Below, one piece after another: positions 30,813 to 60,790 of a DNA stretch of 64,000 nt. Positions within the stretch are counted from its first letter, which is position 1. The number at the start of each line of letters is the position of its first letter. The DNA is from Lysinibacillus fusiformis (GTDB lineage Bacteria > Bacillota > Bacilli > Bacillales_A > Planococcaceae), in NCBI RefSeq assembly GCF_002845985.1, contig NZ_PDFK01000001.1:62001-126000 (forward strand). Direction: 5' to 3'. Made by a program: the position numbers and the translations under genes. Under the pieces are notes generated by a model. The model worked only from the letters and a program-made list of their open reading frames with translations, did not search any database and was not told the DNA's origin.

Positions 30813-31280
30813 TTATCCAATCATTTTCTTTAGATTAGCCATCTCAATGGCAGACATGGCAGCATCGTATCCTTTATTACCAGATTTTGTACCAGCACGT
30901 TCAATCGCCTGCTCAATATTTTCCGTCGTCACAATACCGAAAATAACAGGTACATTGGTTGATAACGATACATTGGCAATACCTTTTGCTGACTCATTAC
31001 AAACATAATCATAGTGTGTTGTAGAGCCGCGAATAACCGTACCTAAACCAATAATGGCATCATAGTTCTTTGTTTCTGCTAGTTGTTTCGCAATAAAAGG
31101 AACTTCAAAAGCTCCTGGAACCCAAGCAACATCAATAGACGCTTCATCAACACCATGTCGTGTTAAGCCGTCCATTGCACCGTCCAATAATTTGCTTGTG
31201 ATGAATTCATTAAATCGACCTACCACAACTGCAATTTTTAAACCCGTTCCAATTAATTGTGCTTCAAATGTTTGACCCAT
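30813..31280 (-). CDS. ribH: 6,7-dimethyl-8-ribityllumazine synthase (RibH)
   Basis: The 155-residue enzyme condenses 5-amino-6-ribitylaminouracil with 3,4-dihydroxy-2-butanone 4-phosphate. Family motifs are intact: [36 protein letters not shown] and [12 protein letters not shown]. It forms a 60-subunit capsid in related bacteria, often around RibE. It is the last gene of the FMN-riboswitch-controlled operon, 15 bases after ribB. Confidence 0.95.
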
Positions 31281-31295: not shown

Positions 31296-31925
31296 TTAAA
31301 TAGAAATTTTATTTTCAGTTGTCAGCAATTGACTGCGGTATGCTACAAGTGCCTCTATTGATATCATTTTCAAGTCATGCTGTGCTGCGTACTTTATCAA
31401 TTCCTCAAAGCGTAGCATATGACCATCATCGCCCATGATCTCGCAAATAACACCCACTGGCACACTATGACAAAGCTTTGCCAAATCGACAGTCGCCTCC
31501 GTATGCCCTCTTCGCTCTAAAACACCATTATCCTTCGCAATGAGCGGAAAAACATGACCAGGTCGACGAAACTCAATCGGCTTTGCTTGCTTTTCAATCA
31601 TTTTTTGTATCGTAAATGCTCGTTCATAGGCACTAATTCCTGTCGTTGTATCCTCATGGTCGATACTTACGGTAAACGCTGTTTGGTGATTATCCGTATT
31701 GTGCTGAACCATCGGATGTAAATCTAGCTGTTGTGCAAGCTGCTGTGAAATCGGTGTACAAATTAATCCTCTACCATAGGTTGCCATAAAGTTTATAGTT
31801 GCTGGTGTCATGAATTCAGCGAGTGCCAGAAGATCTCCTTCATTTTCCCGATCCTCGTCATCAACCACTACAATCATTTTGCCTTGCTTTAAATCCTCAA
31901 TGGCCTCTTCAATTGCATATAGCAC
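31296..31925 (-). CDS. ribB: 3,4-dihydroxy-2-butanone 4-phosphate synthase, monofunctional (RibB)
   Basis: This 209-residue protein has the DHBP synthase motifs [29 protein letters not shown] and [11 protein letters not shown]. In most Bacillales this domain is fused to GTP cyclohydrolase II (RibBA, about 400 residues), but here the frame stops after the DHBP domain. The GTG at 31925 is the start because GAGGAG lies about 9 bases upstream; the open frame reaches 31961, overlapping ribE. It supplies the four-carbon unit of riboflavin from ribulose 5-phosphate. Confidence 0.93.
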
Positions 31926-31950
31926 TTTTGTCATCTCCTCGTTCAGTTTG

Positions 31951-32589
31951 TTAAAAACCATGTTGTGCTAAGTAATCTCTCGTAATGGTTGGTGTTGCTT
32001 GCCCTTTTTTCAGGTGCTGTAAAATATATTTACCAACTAAATCTGTTTCGATATTCACAATCGCTCCAGCCTTCTTCATGCCTAATACGGTTTCTTTGTA
32101 CGTATGGGGAATTAGTGAAATCGTGACACTGTTCGTGTCAACATGGAAAAGGGTTAAGCTTGTGCCATCAATCGTAATAGAACCCTTTGGAATGCAAAAT
32201 TTGGTTAGTTCCTCTGACAATTCGATATCGATATAGACTGCGTTGGCTACTGGACGTTTGCACAAAATTTTACCGACCCCATCCACATGTCCAGCAACAA
32301 AATGACCGCCAAATCGCCCATTAGCAGGCATGGCGCGCTCTAAATTCACGGAATCCCCTACCGCGAGCTGCTGTAAATTGGTTGCGTTGACTGTTTCAGG
32401 CATCACATCCATCGTAAGCGTCTGTTCCGTAAAATATGTCACCGTTAAACAAACACCATTAACCGCGATACTATCTCCAAGCTTGACATCTTCTGCTATT
32501 TTGGCTGATTGAACTGTTATTTTCATACTGTCCCTATCGCTTTGCATGGCTTTTAAAATGCCAATATCCTCTACAAGCCCTGTAAACAT
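31951..32589 (-). CDS. ribE: Riboflavin synthase alpha subunit (RibE)
   Basis: The 212-residue protein has two lumazine-binding repeats beginning [10 protein letters not shown] and [13 protein letters not shown], with conserved NGVCLTV and DGTSLT. It dismutates two dimethylribityllumazines into riboflavin plus the pyrimidine substrate of RibH. It is the first gene of the operon, 26 bases ahead of ribB. Its leader carries two FMN riboswitches and a 21-bp repeat array. The ATG has AGGTGATGG close by. Confidence 0.95.
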
Positions 32590-32621
32590 TCCATCACCTA
32601 CTTTTCATTGATTTAGGCTTC

Positions 32622-32705
32622 TATCCCTCACTTTTGAAGTCTTATCCATCAGTTTCGAAGGTCTATCCGTCACTTCTCCAGTTTTATCCGTCTCCTCCTT
32701 CTCTA
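32622..32705. repeat. Degenerate 21-bp repeat array in the rib leader (4 units)
   Basis: TATCC begins at 32622, 32643, 32664 and 32685, exactly every 21 bases, each followed by a form of GTCACTTTTGAAG. It sits between terminator 2 and ribE, so it is part of the mRNA leader when transcription reads through. The period equals that of the array at 12232-12459. Confidence 0.75.
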
Positions 32706-32720
32706 GCTCTAGCTATCGAT

Positions 32721-32752
32721 AAAAAACAAAAACCCCTTTCAGCAAAGGGGTT
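32721..32752 (-). terminator. Terminator 2 of the rib leader
   Basis: AACCCCTTT and AAAGGGGTT (32731-32752) followed on the minus strand by TTTGTTTTTT. It lies downstream of the gene-proximal FMN aptamer and upstream of ribE. Confidence 0.85.
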
Positions 32753-32820
32753 TGGGAGTATAAGACATCAACAAATAAGCCTAATTGAAAACTATTTTTT
32801 CCATAGACTGTCATCTCATT

Positions 32821-32942
32821 TGTTCTTCTCCCATCCAGACTATAACTGTCGGTTTTGGATTTGCACCAAATCAGCTTGCGCTCACGGACTTTGAATTACT
32901 TCATCACCGCCGATTGGGAATTTCACCCTACCCCGAAGAACA
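32821..32942 (-). ncRNA. FMN riboswitch 2 (gene-proximal RFN element)
   Basis: Read on the minus strand, all RFN consensus blocks are present: CTTCGGGGTAGGGTG, TTCCCAATCGGCGGT, GGTGCAAATCC, AAAACCGACAGT and AGTCTGGATGGGAGAAG. P1 is an 8-bp stem TGTTCTTC/GAAGAACA. FMN binding favours the terminator at 32721-32752 and shuts off ribE-ribB-ribH. It is 112/114 identical to the upstream copy. Confidence 0.95.
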
Positions 32943-32963
32943 TCTTCTATTCGATTGGCACTA

Positions 32964-32997
32964 AATAAAAAAACTTCCCAACAAGCTTGTGGGAAGT
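32964..32997 (-). terminator. Terminator 1 of the rib leader
   Basis: ACTTCCCA and TGGGAAGT, extended through the self-complementary ACAAGCTTGT, followed on the minus strand by TTTTTTTATTT. It lies between the two FMN aptamers. Confidence 0.85.
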
Positions 32998-33063
32998 AGT
33001 GTAATAAATGCATAGGAAAATAAACCTTCTAAATTACAATCAATTTAAAAAGCTCGCATTTTT

Positions 33064-33183
33064 ACCCTTCTCCCATCCAGACTATAACTGTCGGTTTTGG
33101 ATTTGCACCAAATCAGCTTGCGCTCACGGACTTTGAATTACTTCATCACCGCCGATCGGGAATTTCACCCTACCCTGAAGGAT
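33064..33183 (-). ncRNA. FMN riboswitch 1 (promoter-proximal RFN element)
   Basis: This is a second complete RFN element with every conserved block. The 114-base core (33067-33180) differs from the downstream copy at only two positions. P1 uses other bases, ATCCTTC/GAAGGGT with one wobble, and stays paired. It is followed by its own terminator at 32964-32997. Confidence 0.95.
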
Positions 33184-33260
33184 TTTTTATTTAGCTAATC
33201 TTACGATAACACTATTTTATTCTATTATCCATCCTTCTTTTTAAAAATTTTTCAAAAAGA

Positions 33261-37247: not shown

Positions 37248-37538
37248 TTATGTCATTTCCGTTGCAATCGCAGTATTTTCTGATAATATTTACCATAAGA
37301 TGTTTACGTACGTTCAAAATAGTTGTTGTTTCATGATGCACTACACTAGGTCGCCCATCCTATGTCATATCTTTAAACATCAATTACGCCTTTGACGTAA
37401 TTGCCGCTGATTCTGCATTTTCGCGCAGATCAACTTTGCGCCCCGTTTTTTCGAGCTGATGAGTAGAATGTTAACCTCAGACCATCACGTCCTGTGACAG
37501 TTAACTGACTTGCATCGTGCAGGTCAACTTCAAAATCA

Positions 37539-60625: not shown

Positions 60626-60790
60626 GCGACATCCTCCAGAGATTGTGAGGCAACATGATATTGGTCACACCGTCATTGCCACAGAACGTGGTGTTTTTTG
60701 ACGGTGTTCTTTTCTTTCAGCGATTGATTGGACACCCACTGCAAACACTCATCTCCCTCAGAGTAGGAGGAAATCTTCAGTTCAATCAAG
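60626..60790 (+). repeat. Dispersed noncoding repeat, copy 2
   Basis: GCGACATCCTCCAGAGATTG, TGAGGCAACATG (60646-60657), TTGCCAC (60676-60682), a CCAC/GTGG hairpin followed by TTTTTT (60694-60699), GACACCCACTG and finally TCTTCAGTTCAAT. The order and several exact blocks match copy 1 at 33301-33420. The hairpin with its T-run looks like a terminator; it may end pucR transcription. Confidence 0.65.

What the first reader, a model, noticed from the sequence alone, without database searches (positions are those of the whole stretch)
32819..33185. Two nearly identical FMN riboswitches in tandem, each with its own terminator
Both RFN elements are complete. Their 114-base cores differ at two positions, yet P1 outside the core uses different but still complementary bases in each copy. 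The order is promoter, aptamer 1, terminator 1, aptamer 2, terminator 2, ribE. Two independent FMN-sensing attenuators in series would give a steeper, tighter response than one. Tandem arrangements are established for glycine and TPP riboswitches; I do not know of a described FMN pair. The near-identity means a recent duplication or ongoing gene conversion.
Basis: partly seen in the sequence, partly recalled or inferred. Interest (0 to 1): 0.88.

Follow-up and report, generated by a model that had tools for sequence, protein, structure and literature searches.

The report
Paired FMN riboswitches before riboflavin genes
Two complete vitamin-B2 sensing RNA switches sit one after the other ahead of three riboflavin genes; such pairs were already in print, but this one is old in its genus and relatives stack up to five.

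Summary
Confirmed: two complete FMN riboswitches (RF00050, 114.8 and 117.8 bits) lie in tandem on the minus strand before ribE-ribB-ribH, each followed by an intrinsic terminator. Most likely they are two FMN-triggered transcription attenuators in series. The kind is known: PMC9481103 lists 31 doublet and 4 triplet FMN riboswitches, and PMC12452182 reports double or triple ones at ribE-ribB-ribH in Bacillota. The pair is not recent: 28 of 32 genomes of the genus (Lysinibacillus, inferred) have it, with position-specific flanks. In the family 110 of 261 genomes carry an array: 94 doublets, 13 triplets, 2 quadruplets, 1 quintuplet. RibE follows all 110; 242 of 243 copies have a terminator. In the parts I read, the two surveys report no FMN array above three. 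Aptamer cores are more alike within a genome than expected in 4 of 5 genera tested, while platforms keep their position-specific identity in the window's genus: possible gene conversion of the core. In a simple model stacking mainly lowers leak (apparent Hill 1.19 for two). No function was measured.

The parts
33203..33231 (-). Promoter-like conserved block upstream of copy 1 (TGGATAAT at 33231-33224; best two-hexamer match TGGATA-17-TATCGT)
   Evidence: GATAAT 30-70 nt before aptamer 1 in 26 of 28 genus genomes (alignment). Promoter function is inferred; a TGCTATAAT at 33269-33261 is seen only in G000 and G007 in the alignment.
33061..33186 (-). FMN aptamer 1 (upstream copy, U)
   Evidence: RF00050, 114.8 bits, E 5.2e-26, full length
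32998..33060 (-). Expression platform 1: conserved anti-terminator region
   Evidence: RNAalifold on 28 genomes: GGGAG of the aptamer 3' end pairs with the 5' arm of terminator 1; 690 of 702 cells standard pairs, 2 of 26 pairs with two-sided changes
32963..32997 (-). Intrinsic terminator 1 with U tract
   Evidence: Hairpin -11.7 kcal/mol followed by a U tract; not listed by the simple scan
32819..32944 (-). FMN aptamer 2 (downstream copy, D)
   Evidence: RF00050, 117.8 bits, E 7.8e-27, full length
32754..32818 (-). Expression platform 2: conserved anti-terminator region ending in CUCCC
   Evidence: GGGAG x CUCCC invariant in 27 of 27 distinct rows; GGGGU (aptamer 2) x ACCCC (terminator 2 arm) in the fold of the truncated transcript
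32723..32753 (-). Intrinsic terminator 2 with U tract
   Evidence: Hairpin -13.8 kcal/mol
31951..32589 (-). ribE, riboflavin synthase
   Evidence: TIGR00187, 254.7 bits, cut-off 156.6
31296..31961 (-). ribB, 3,4-dihydroxy-2-butanone-4-phosphate synthase without a RibA domain (221 aa)
   Evidence: TIGR00506, 269.5 bits, cut-off 177.45; bifunctional models match only in their RibB half
30813..31280 (-). ribH, lumazine synthase
   Evidence: TIGR00114, 194.2 bits, cut-off 84.6

Best explanation
The leader of the ribE-ribB-ribH operon carries two complete, independent FMN OFF-riboswitches in series. When FMN is low, each aptamer's 3' GGGAG segment pairs with sequence in or just before the following terminator and transcription reads on. 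When FMN is bound, P1 closes, the terminator forms and transcription stops. A polymerase must pass both checkpoints, so read-through probabilities multiply: lower leak, lower midpoint, slightly steeper response (what PMC9481103 calls pseudo-cooperative). Shown here: both aptamers, both terminators, conserved alternative pairings, conservation of the pair, no good promoter-like site between the copies in the window. Inferred: FMN binding, termination efficiency, the switch itself, and for copy 2 the sequestering of the terminator arm by GGGGU.
For: RF00050 hits well above the cut-off for both copies. Terminators after both copies; across the family after 132 of 132 inner and 110 of 111 last copies, against 31 of 486 shuffled stretches. 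Conserved anti-terminator pairings in both platforms over 28 genomes and folds of truncated transcripts that contain them. Riboflavin genes directly downstream; RibE downstream of 110 of 110 arrays. Pair in 28 of 32 genus genomes. Series model.
Against: No binding or transcription data. For copy 2 the conserved GGGAG x CUCCC helix lies just 5' of terminator 2, does not overlap its stem, and both appear together in the consensus fold of the full platform, so the switch rests on the weaker pairing GGGGU x ACCCC seen in a single-sequence fold. For copy 1 the consensus fold of the full platform shows the anti-terminator and not the terminator. Two-sided changes are few (2 of 26 pairs for copy 1, 1 of 18 for copy 2), so covariation support is thin. 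The unconstrained fold of the whole copy 1 is not the aptamer fold.
Confidence: 0.9

Rival explanations
1. Only one copy regulates; the other is a spare, or responds to a different flavin or at a different concentration, so the array widens the response instead of sharpening it.
For: Some core columns are copy-specific across the genus (column 1: D is G in 28 of 28, U in 16 of 28; columns 20 and 98 also differ by copy). P1 differs by copy, which could set different switching thresholds.
Against: Both cores score alike against RF00050. Both keep terminators and conserved pairings. The cores differ at 2 of 106 positions in the window.
Confidence: 0.15
2. The second copy belongs to its own transcript from a promoter between the copies, so the two are separate units.
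For: In 6 of 28 genomes the space between the copies has a promoter-like match as good as the upstream one; AT-rich spacer.
Against: In the window the best match between the copies is 6 of 12, against 9 (TG bonus included) upstream, and in 0 of 28 genomes is it better than upstream. The scan found none between the copies. The upstream block is conserved.
Confidence: 0.05
3. One cooperative dual-aptamer riboswitch, as in glycine riboswitches, with the two aptamers touching each other.
For: Near-identical aptamers a short distance apart (116 nt).
Against: Each copy has its own expression platform and terminator, and outer P1 pairs better within than across copies in 28 of 30 genus arrays.
Confidence: 0.03
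4. A recent tandem duplication or an assembly artefact with no selected role.
For: Cores nearly identical.
Against: Present with position-specific flanks in 28 of 32 genus genomes, single-contig assemblies among them. Platforms U and D of one genome are 0.63 identical while U-U and D-D between species are 0.80.
Confidence: 0.01

Closest known systems
Tandem pseudo-cooperative FMN riboswitches (PMC9481103; passages and section 20 part 1 of 2 read): 31 doublets and 4 triplets
   Same: Same aptamer class twice in one leader, each with its own expression platform, same predicted series logic.
   Different: In what I read it gives only counts for FMN, none above three, and the words duplication and gene conversion do not occur in its main text.
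Double and triple FMN riboswitches at ribE-ribB-ribH in Bacillota (PMC12452182; passages and section 22 parts 1 and 3 of 4 read)
   Same: Same riboswitch pair, same operon and same phylum as the window: FMN FMN 87%, FMN FMN FMN 13%.
   Different: The main text does not hold the words Lysinibacillus or Planococcaceae, nor quadrupl-, 'four contiguous' or five. Its supplementary tables, which list the genomes, were not open to me, so the window's genus may be in them.
Tandem TPP riboswitches (PMC2258182; passages read)
   Same: Independent riboswitches in one leader, described there as a more digital compound switch.
   Different: Different ligand.
Single FMN riboswitch of the Bacillus subtilis rib operon (recalled; RF00050 also rings in B. 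subtilis in the control)
   Same: Same aptamer class and the same transcription-attenuation type.
   Different: One copy (recalled).

Membership tests
FMN riboswitch (RFN element, RF00050) | Sequence and structure score above the family's gathering score, full length | tested here: met
   114.8 and 117.8 bits against 66.2, model positions 1-138
FMN riboswitch (RFN element, RF00050) | Leader of a riboflavin gene | tested here: met
   ribE-ribB-ribH downstream
FMN riboswitch (RFN element, RF00050) | Binds FMN and changes expression | not testable with these tools
   No experiment available
Tandem pseudo-cooperative riboswitch | Two complete riboswitches of one class in one leader, no ORF between | tested here: met
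   Two full-length matches 116 nt apart, a space too short for any ORF of 40 codons or more
Tandem pseudo-cooperative riboswitch | An expression platform for each aptamer | tested here: met
   A terminator after each copy; conserved anti-terminator pairing in each platform
Tandem pseudo-cooperative riboswitch | Copies act independently and give a steeper dose response | not testable with these tools
   Only a model: apparent Hill 1.19 for two ideal copies
Cooperative dual-aptamer riboswitch (glycine type) | Two aptamers share one expression platform | tested here: not met
   Separate terminators for the two copies

The most novel reading that the evidence does not exclude
Tandem FMN riboswitches in this family behave as a recombining repeat array. 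Copy number runs from two to five (a quintuple array of complete aptamer-plus-terminator units in G025, quadruple arrays in G064 and G066). Internal units expand by unequal exchange, the last unit keeps its own platform, and aptamer cores within an array are kept alike by gene conversion that stops at P1. Whole arrays with their operon have moved between genera. Riboswitch copy number would then be an evolvable dial for leak and threshold.
Probability: 0.5. Interest if true: 0.5.

Novelty: new member of a known kind. Interest (0 to 1): 0.3.

Why it matters
The window itself adds one more example to a published kind. The survey around it makes the kind more useful: in one bacterial family the same operon carries natural arrays of 2, 3, 4 and 5 FMN attenuators, beside genomes without an array. 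That is a ready-made series for testing how copy number sets leak, midpoint and steepness. The contrast between alike cores and position-specific platforms is a case of possible gene conversion acting on riboswitches; two searches of the held library listed no paper that treats this by its title.

Tried and rejected
Degenerate or variant tandem FMN pairs: low-scoring neighbouring hits in G084, G090, G099, G101, G108 (genus g12, Planococcus) and in G180 read, by eye, as single aptamers split by an insertion, each with RibE downstream. They are not in the array count, nor is G035, whose two hits start 1058 nt apart. Weak single hits in G073, G141 and G173 had no RibE in the fetched stretch and were not pursued.

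Enclosing helix: the stretch before copy 1 (UAGCUAAAUAAAA) is complementary to the stretch at and after the U tract of terminator 1 in several genomes. Own duplexes were only slightly better than swapped ones (-11.43 against -10.73 kcal/mol; 57 of 10000 permutations as good; shuffled -9.64). Small effect, relatedness not controlled; not used.

Orthogonal P1s as a general rule: clear in the window's genus (own above cross in 28 of 30 arrays), not elsewhere, e.g. 0 of 13 in g12, 4 of 17 in g13, 5 of 14 in g16. Rejected as a general rule.

Gene conversion, results against it: g12 shows no signal (within 1.77, between 1.77). In g13 platforms too are more alike within a genome (0.672) than U-U (0.623) or D-D (0.645), so duplication of whole units is not excluded there; in g18 U-U platforms (0.564) are barely above U-D of the same genome (0.550). 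In g1 several core columns are copy-specific (1, 20, 98) and a fast column (42) shows no concordance (same in 15 of 28). The paired tree tests had too few events to reach significance in the columns whose result I saw; part of that output was cut. Parallel selection on both copies is not excluded.

Motif TTGAAT(A) or TCGAATA before later copies: 52 of 130 later copies against 4 of 110 first copies, uneven by genus. The pattern was chosen after seeing the sequences. Left as noticed.

Full report
What is there. On the minus strand the window holds aptamer 1 at 33186-33061, terminator 1 at 32997-32963, aptamer 2 at 32944-32819, terminator 2 at 32753-32723, then ribE (32589-31951), ribB (31961-31296) and ribH (31280-30813). 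Both aptamers are full-length matches to RF00050, 114.8 and 117.8 bits against a gathering score of 66.2. They differ at 9 of 126 positions, 2 of them inside the CUUC...GAAG core. The hairpins fold at -11.7 and -13.8 kcal/mol; the simple scan listed terminator 2 but not terminator 1. Gene identities come from NCBIfam matches above cut-off. The genome has a third FMN riboswitch in front of an ECF transporter substrate-specific component, presumably RibU.

Promoter. The consensus scan found 2 promoter-like sites with 3.3 expected by chance, one on the minus strand at 33443-33416 and none between the copies. Nearer to copy 1 a block with TGGATAAT (33231-33224) is conserved: GATAAT lies 30-70 nt before aptamer 1 in 26 of 28 genus genomes. 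Between the copies the best match in the window is 6 of 12; in 0 of 28 genomes is it better than upstream, with 6 ties.

How it likely works. RNAalifold over the 28 two-copy genomes of the genus finds, for copy 1, GGGAG at the aptamer's 3' end pairing with the 5' arm of terminator 1 around a long conserved hairpin (690 of 702 cells standard pairs). For copy 2, GGGAG pairs with CUCCC just before terminator 2 (invariant in 27 of 27 distinct rows). The fold of the truncated copy-2 transcript adds GGGGU of the aptamer pairing with ACCCC of the terminator arm. In copy 2 the first G of that run is kept in 28 of 28 genomes, in copy 1 in 16 of 28, which fits this pairing but does not prove it. Two-sided changes are few (2 of 26 and 1 of 18 pairs). 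In the full copy-2 platform the consensus fold holds the GGGAG x CUCCC helix and terminator 2 together, so for copy 2 the exact switch is the weakest step. I infer two OFF attenuators in series.

What series stacking buys. In a model of identical independent attenuators without leak the EC10/EC90 span falls from 81-fold to 40-fold for two copies and 27.5-fold for five, apparent Hill coefficients 1.19 and 1.33. With 10% leak per site the dynamic range rises from 10 to 100 (two) and 100,000 (five), Hill 1.13 and 1.30, and the midpoint falls. The main gain is tightness. This is a model, not a measurement.

Survey of the family. RF00050 was searched in the 261 genomes that the family search returned when 400 were asked for, and positions were read for all 261 (32+36+35+49+42+67 genomes; searches ran with stricter filters that lose weak matches). 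Counting hits on the same contig and strand with starts under 700 nt apart, 110 of 261 carry an array: 94 doublets, 13 triplets, 2 quadruplets (G064, G066) and 1 quintuplet (G025). Arrays at contig ends may be missed. G068 is counted as a triplet, but a run of N covers what begins like a fourth copy, and G011's second array lies beside a run of N and is not counted as a further genome. RibE is downstream in all 110. A terminator of -7 kcal/mol or better follows 132 of 132 inner and 110 of 111 last copies (G011's second array included; the miss is G019, -6.1), against 31 of 486 shuffled stretches.

Beyond the family. In a sample of 398 class genomes, 359 of them outside the family, none of the 359 has more than 3 FMN hits. 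Of the 26 outside genomes with three hits, 21 have an adjacent pair, all in one genus; none of 36 two-hit genomes that I followed up has one. The remaining two-hit genomes were not checked. The genus is probably Brevibacillus, since a Brevibacillus parabrevis record matches the tandem pattern. By equal contig lengths the window's genus is Lysinibacillus; others with arrays include Planococcus, Psychrobacillus, Solibacillus, Ureibacillus, Kurthia and Viridibacillus. I could not name G025, G064, G066 or G068.

Age and sequence exchange. In the genus, 28 of 32 genomes have the pair; G011 and G025 have longer arrays; G005 (86% complete) and G016 have neither an array nor a RibE match. Flanks are position-specific: U-D identity within a genome is 0.38 in the 40 nt before the aptamer and 0.36 and 0.27 in the outer P1 strands, while U-U and D-D between species are 0.72-0.88. 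So the duplication is at least as old as these genomes' common ancestor. Near-identity of the cores in the window (0.98) is not a sign of recent duplication, since core U-U and D-D between species are 0.967 and 0.978. Beyond that there is a signal of exchange: mean core differences within a genome against U-U between genomes are 2.54 and 3.49 in g1, 3.00 and 11.66 in g13, 3.57 and 7.40 in g16, 3.54 and 6.08 in g18 (0 of 10000 permutations as low in each); g12 shows none (one genome, G241, was dropped from g18 for length). D-D in g1 is 2.35, lower than the within-genome value. On a tree of the rib genes, core column 6 changed 4 times in each copy yet matches within the genome in 27 of 28; other columns are copy-specific or not concordant. 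Platforms stay orthologous by position in g1 (0.80, 0.80 against 0.63) and g12, less evenly in g16 (0.69, 0.82 against 0.60), hardly for the upstream copy in g18, and not in g13. Gene conversion limited to the core is the simplest reading; parallel selection, and in g13 duplication of whole units, are not excluded.

Longer arrays. In G025 units 2, 3 and 4 have identical platforms while the last has another, which points to expansion of internal units; G064, G066, G129, G136 and G138 show the same contrast between inner and last platforms. RibE of G025 and G011 is 82-85% identical to that of g10 but at most 61.3% identical to that of the two-copy members of its own genus, so the operon with its array has probably moved between genera.

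What is known. PMC9481103 (passages, section 20 part 1) describes tandem pseudo-cooperative riboswitches and lists 31 doublet and 4 triplet FMN riboswitches. [quoted passage not shown] PMC2258182, PMC3766115 and PMC2211319 were read in passages only. A search for six wordings of tandem FMN found only PMC12452182; the phrase 'tandem FMN riboswitch' found nothing. Searches of riboswitch with gene conversion and tandem, and with concerted evolution, listed 8 and 3 papers, none on this subject by title; Lysinibacillus with FMN riboswitch listed 2, neither on it by title. I saw no report of FMN arrays of four or five, but supplements and most subscription journals were not open to me.

Verdict. Interest is modest for the window, higher for the array series around it.

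Noticed in passing
L055:5221-6145 (G025), L083 (G064), L084:2085-2804 (G066): Arrays of five and four complete FMN riboswitches with a period of about 201 nt; in L055 they precede ribD-ribE-ribBA-ribH, and G025 units 2-4 have identical platforms.
   Followed up: partly
L193:1914-5480 (own genome C2, about 360-364 kb): In the window's genome ribA and ribD lie apart from ribE-ribB-ribH, next to a FAD-binding monooxygenase-like gene and an NT5C (HAD phosphatase) gene, with no FMN riboswitch in the 8-kb stretch. So the tandem pair seems to control only half of the pathway; the phosphatase could be the riboflavin-pathway one.
   Followed up: partly
L149, L150, L151, L152, L153, L154: In five Planococcus genomes and G180 the single FMN aptamer before ribE is split by an insertion, part of which looks alike between genomes by eye; whether it still switches is unknown.
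   Followed up: partly
upstream of later aptamer copies, e.g. window 32954-32948: TTGAAT(A) or TCGAATA in the 30 nt before later copies: 52 of 130, against 4 of 110 first copies; most frequent in g10 (8 of 8) and g1 (26 of 34).
   Followed up: partly
window about 33197-33184 and 32972-32961: The stretch before aptamer 1 is complementary to the stretch at and after the U tract of terminator 1 in several genomes; the swap test gave only a small effect.
   Followed up: partly
window 37460-37523 (+) and 60650-60716 (-): Two Bacillaceae-1 sRNA matches (RF01690), 38.9 and 47.8 bits.
   Followed up: no
window about 32620-32690 (-): Imperfect short repeat (GTGA.GGATAGA-like) between terminator 2 and ribE, seen by eye only.
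   Followed up: no
G016: A 99%-complete genome of the genus with no RibE match and no RibD above the cut-off, with one FMN riboswitch left: a predicted riboflavin auxotroph.
   Followed up: no
L042:5535-12800 (G011): A second array with RibD and RibE copies 4968 nt downstream of the first, bordered by a run of N: operon duplication or assembly error.
   Followed up: no
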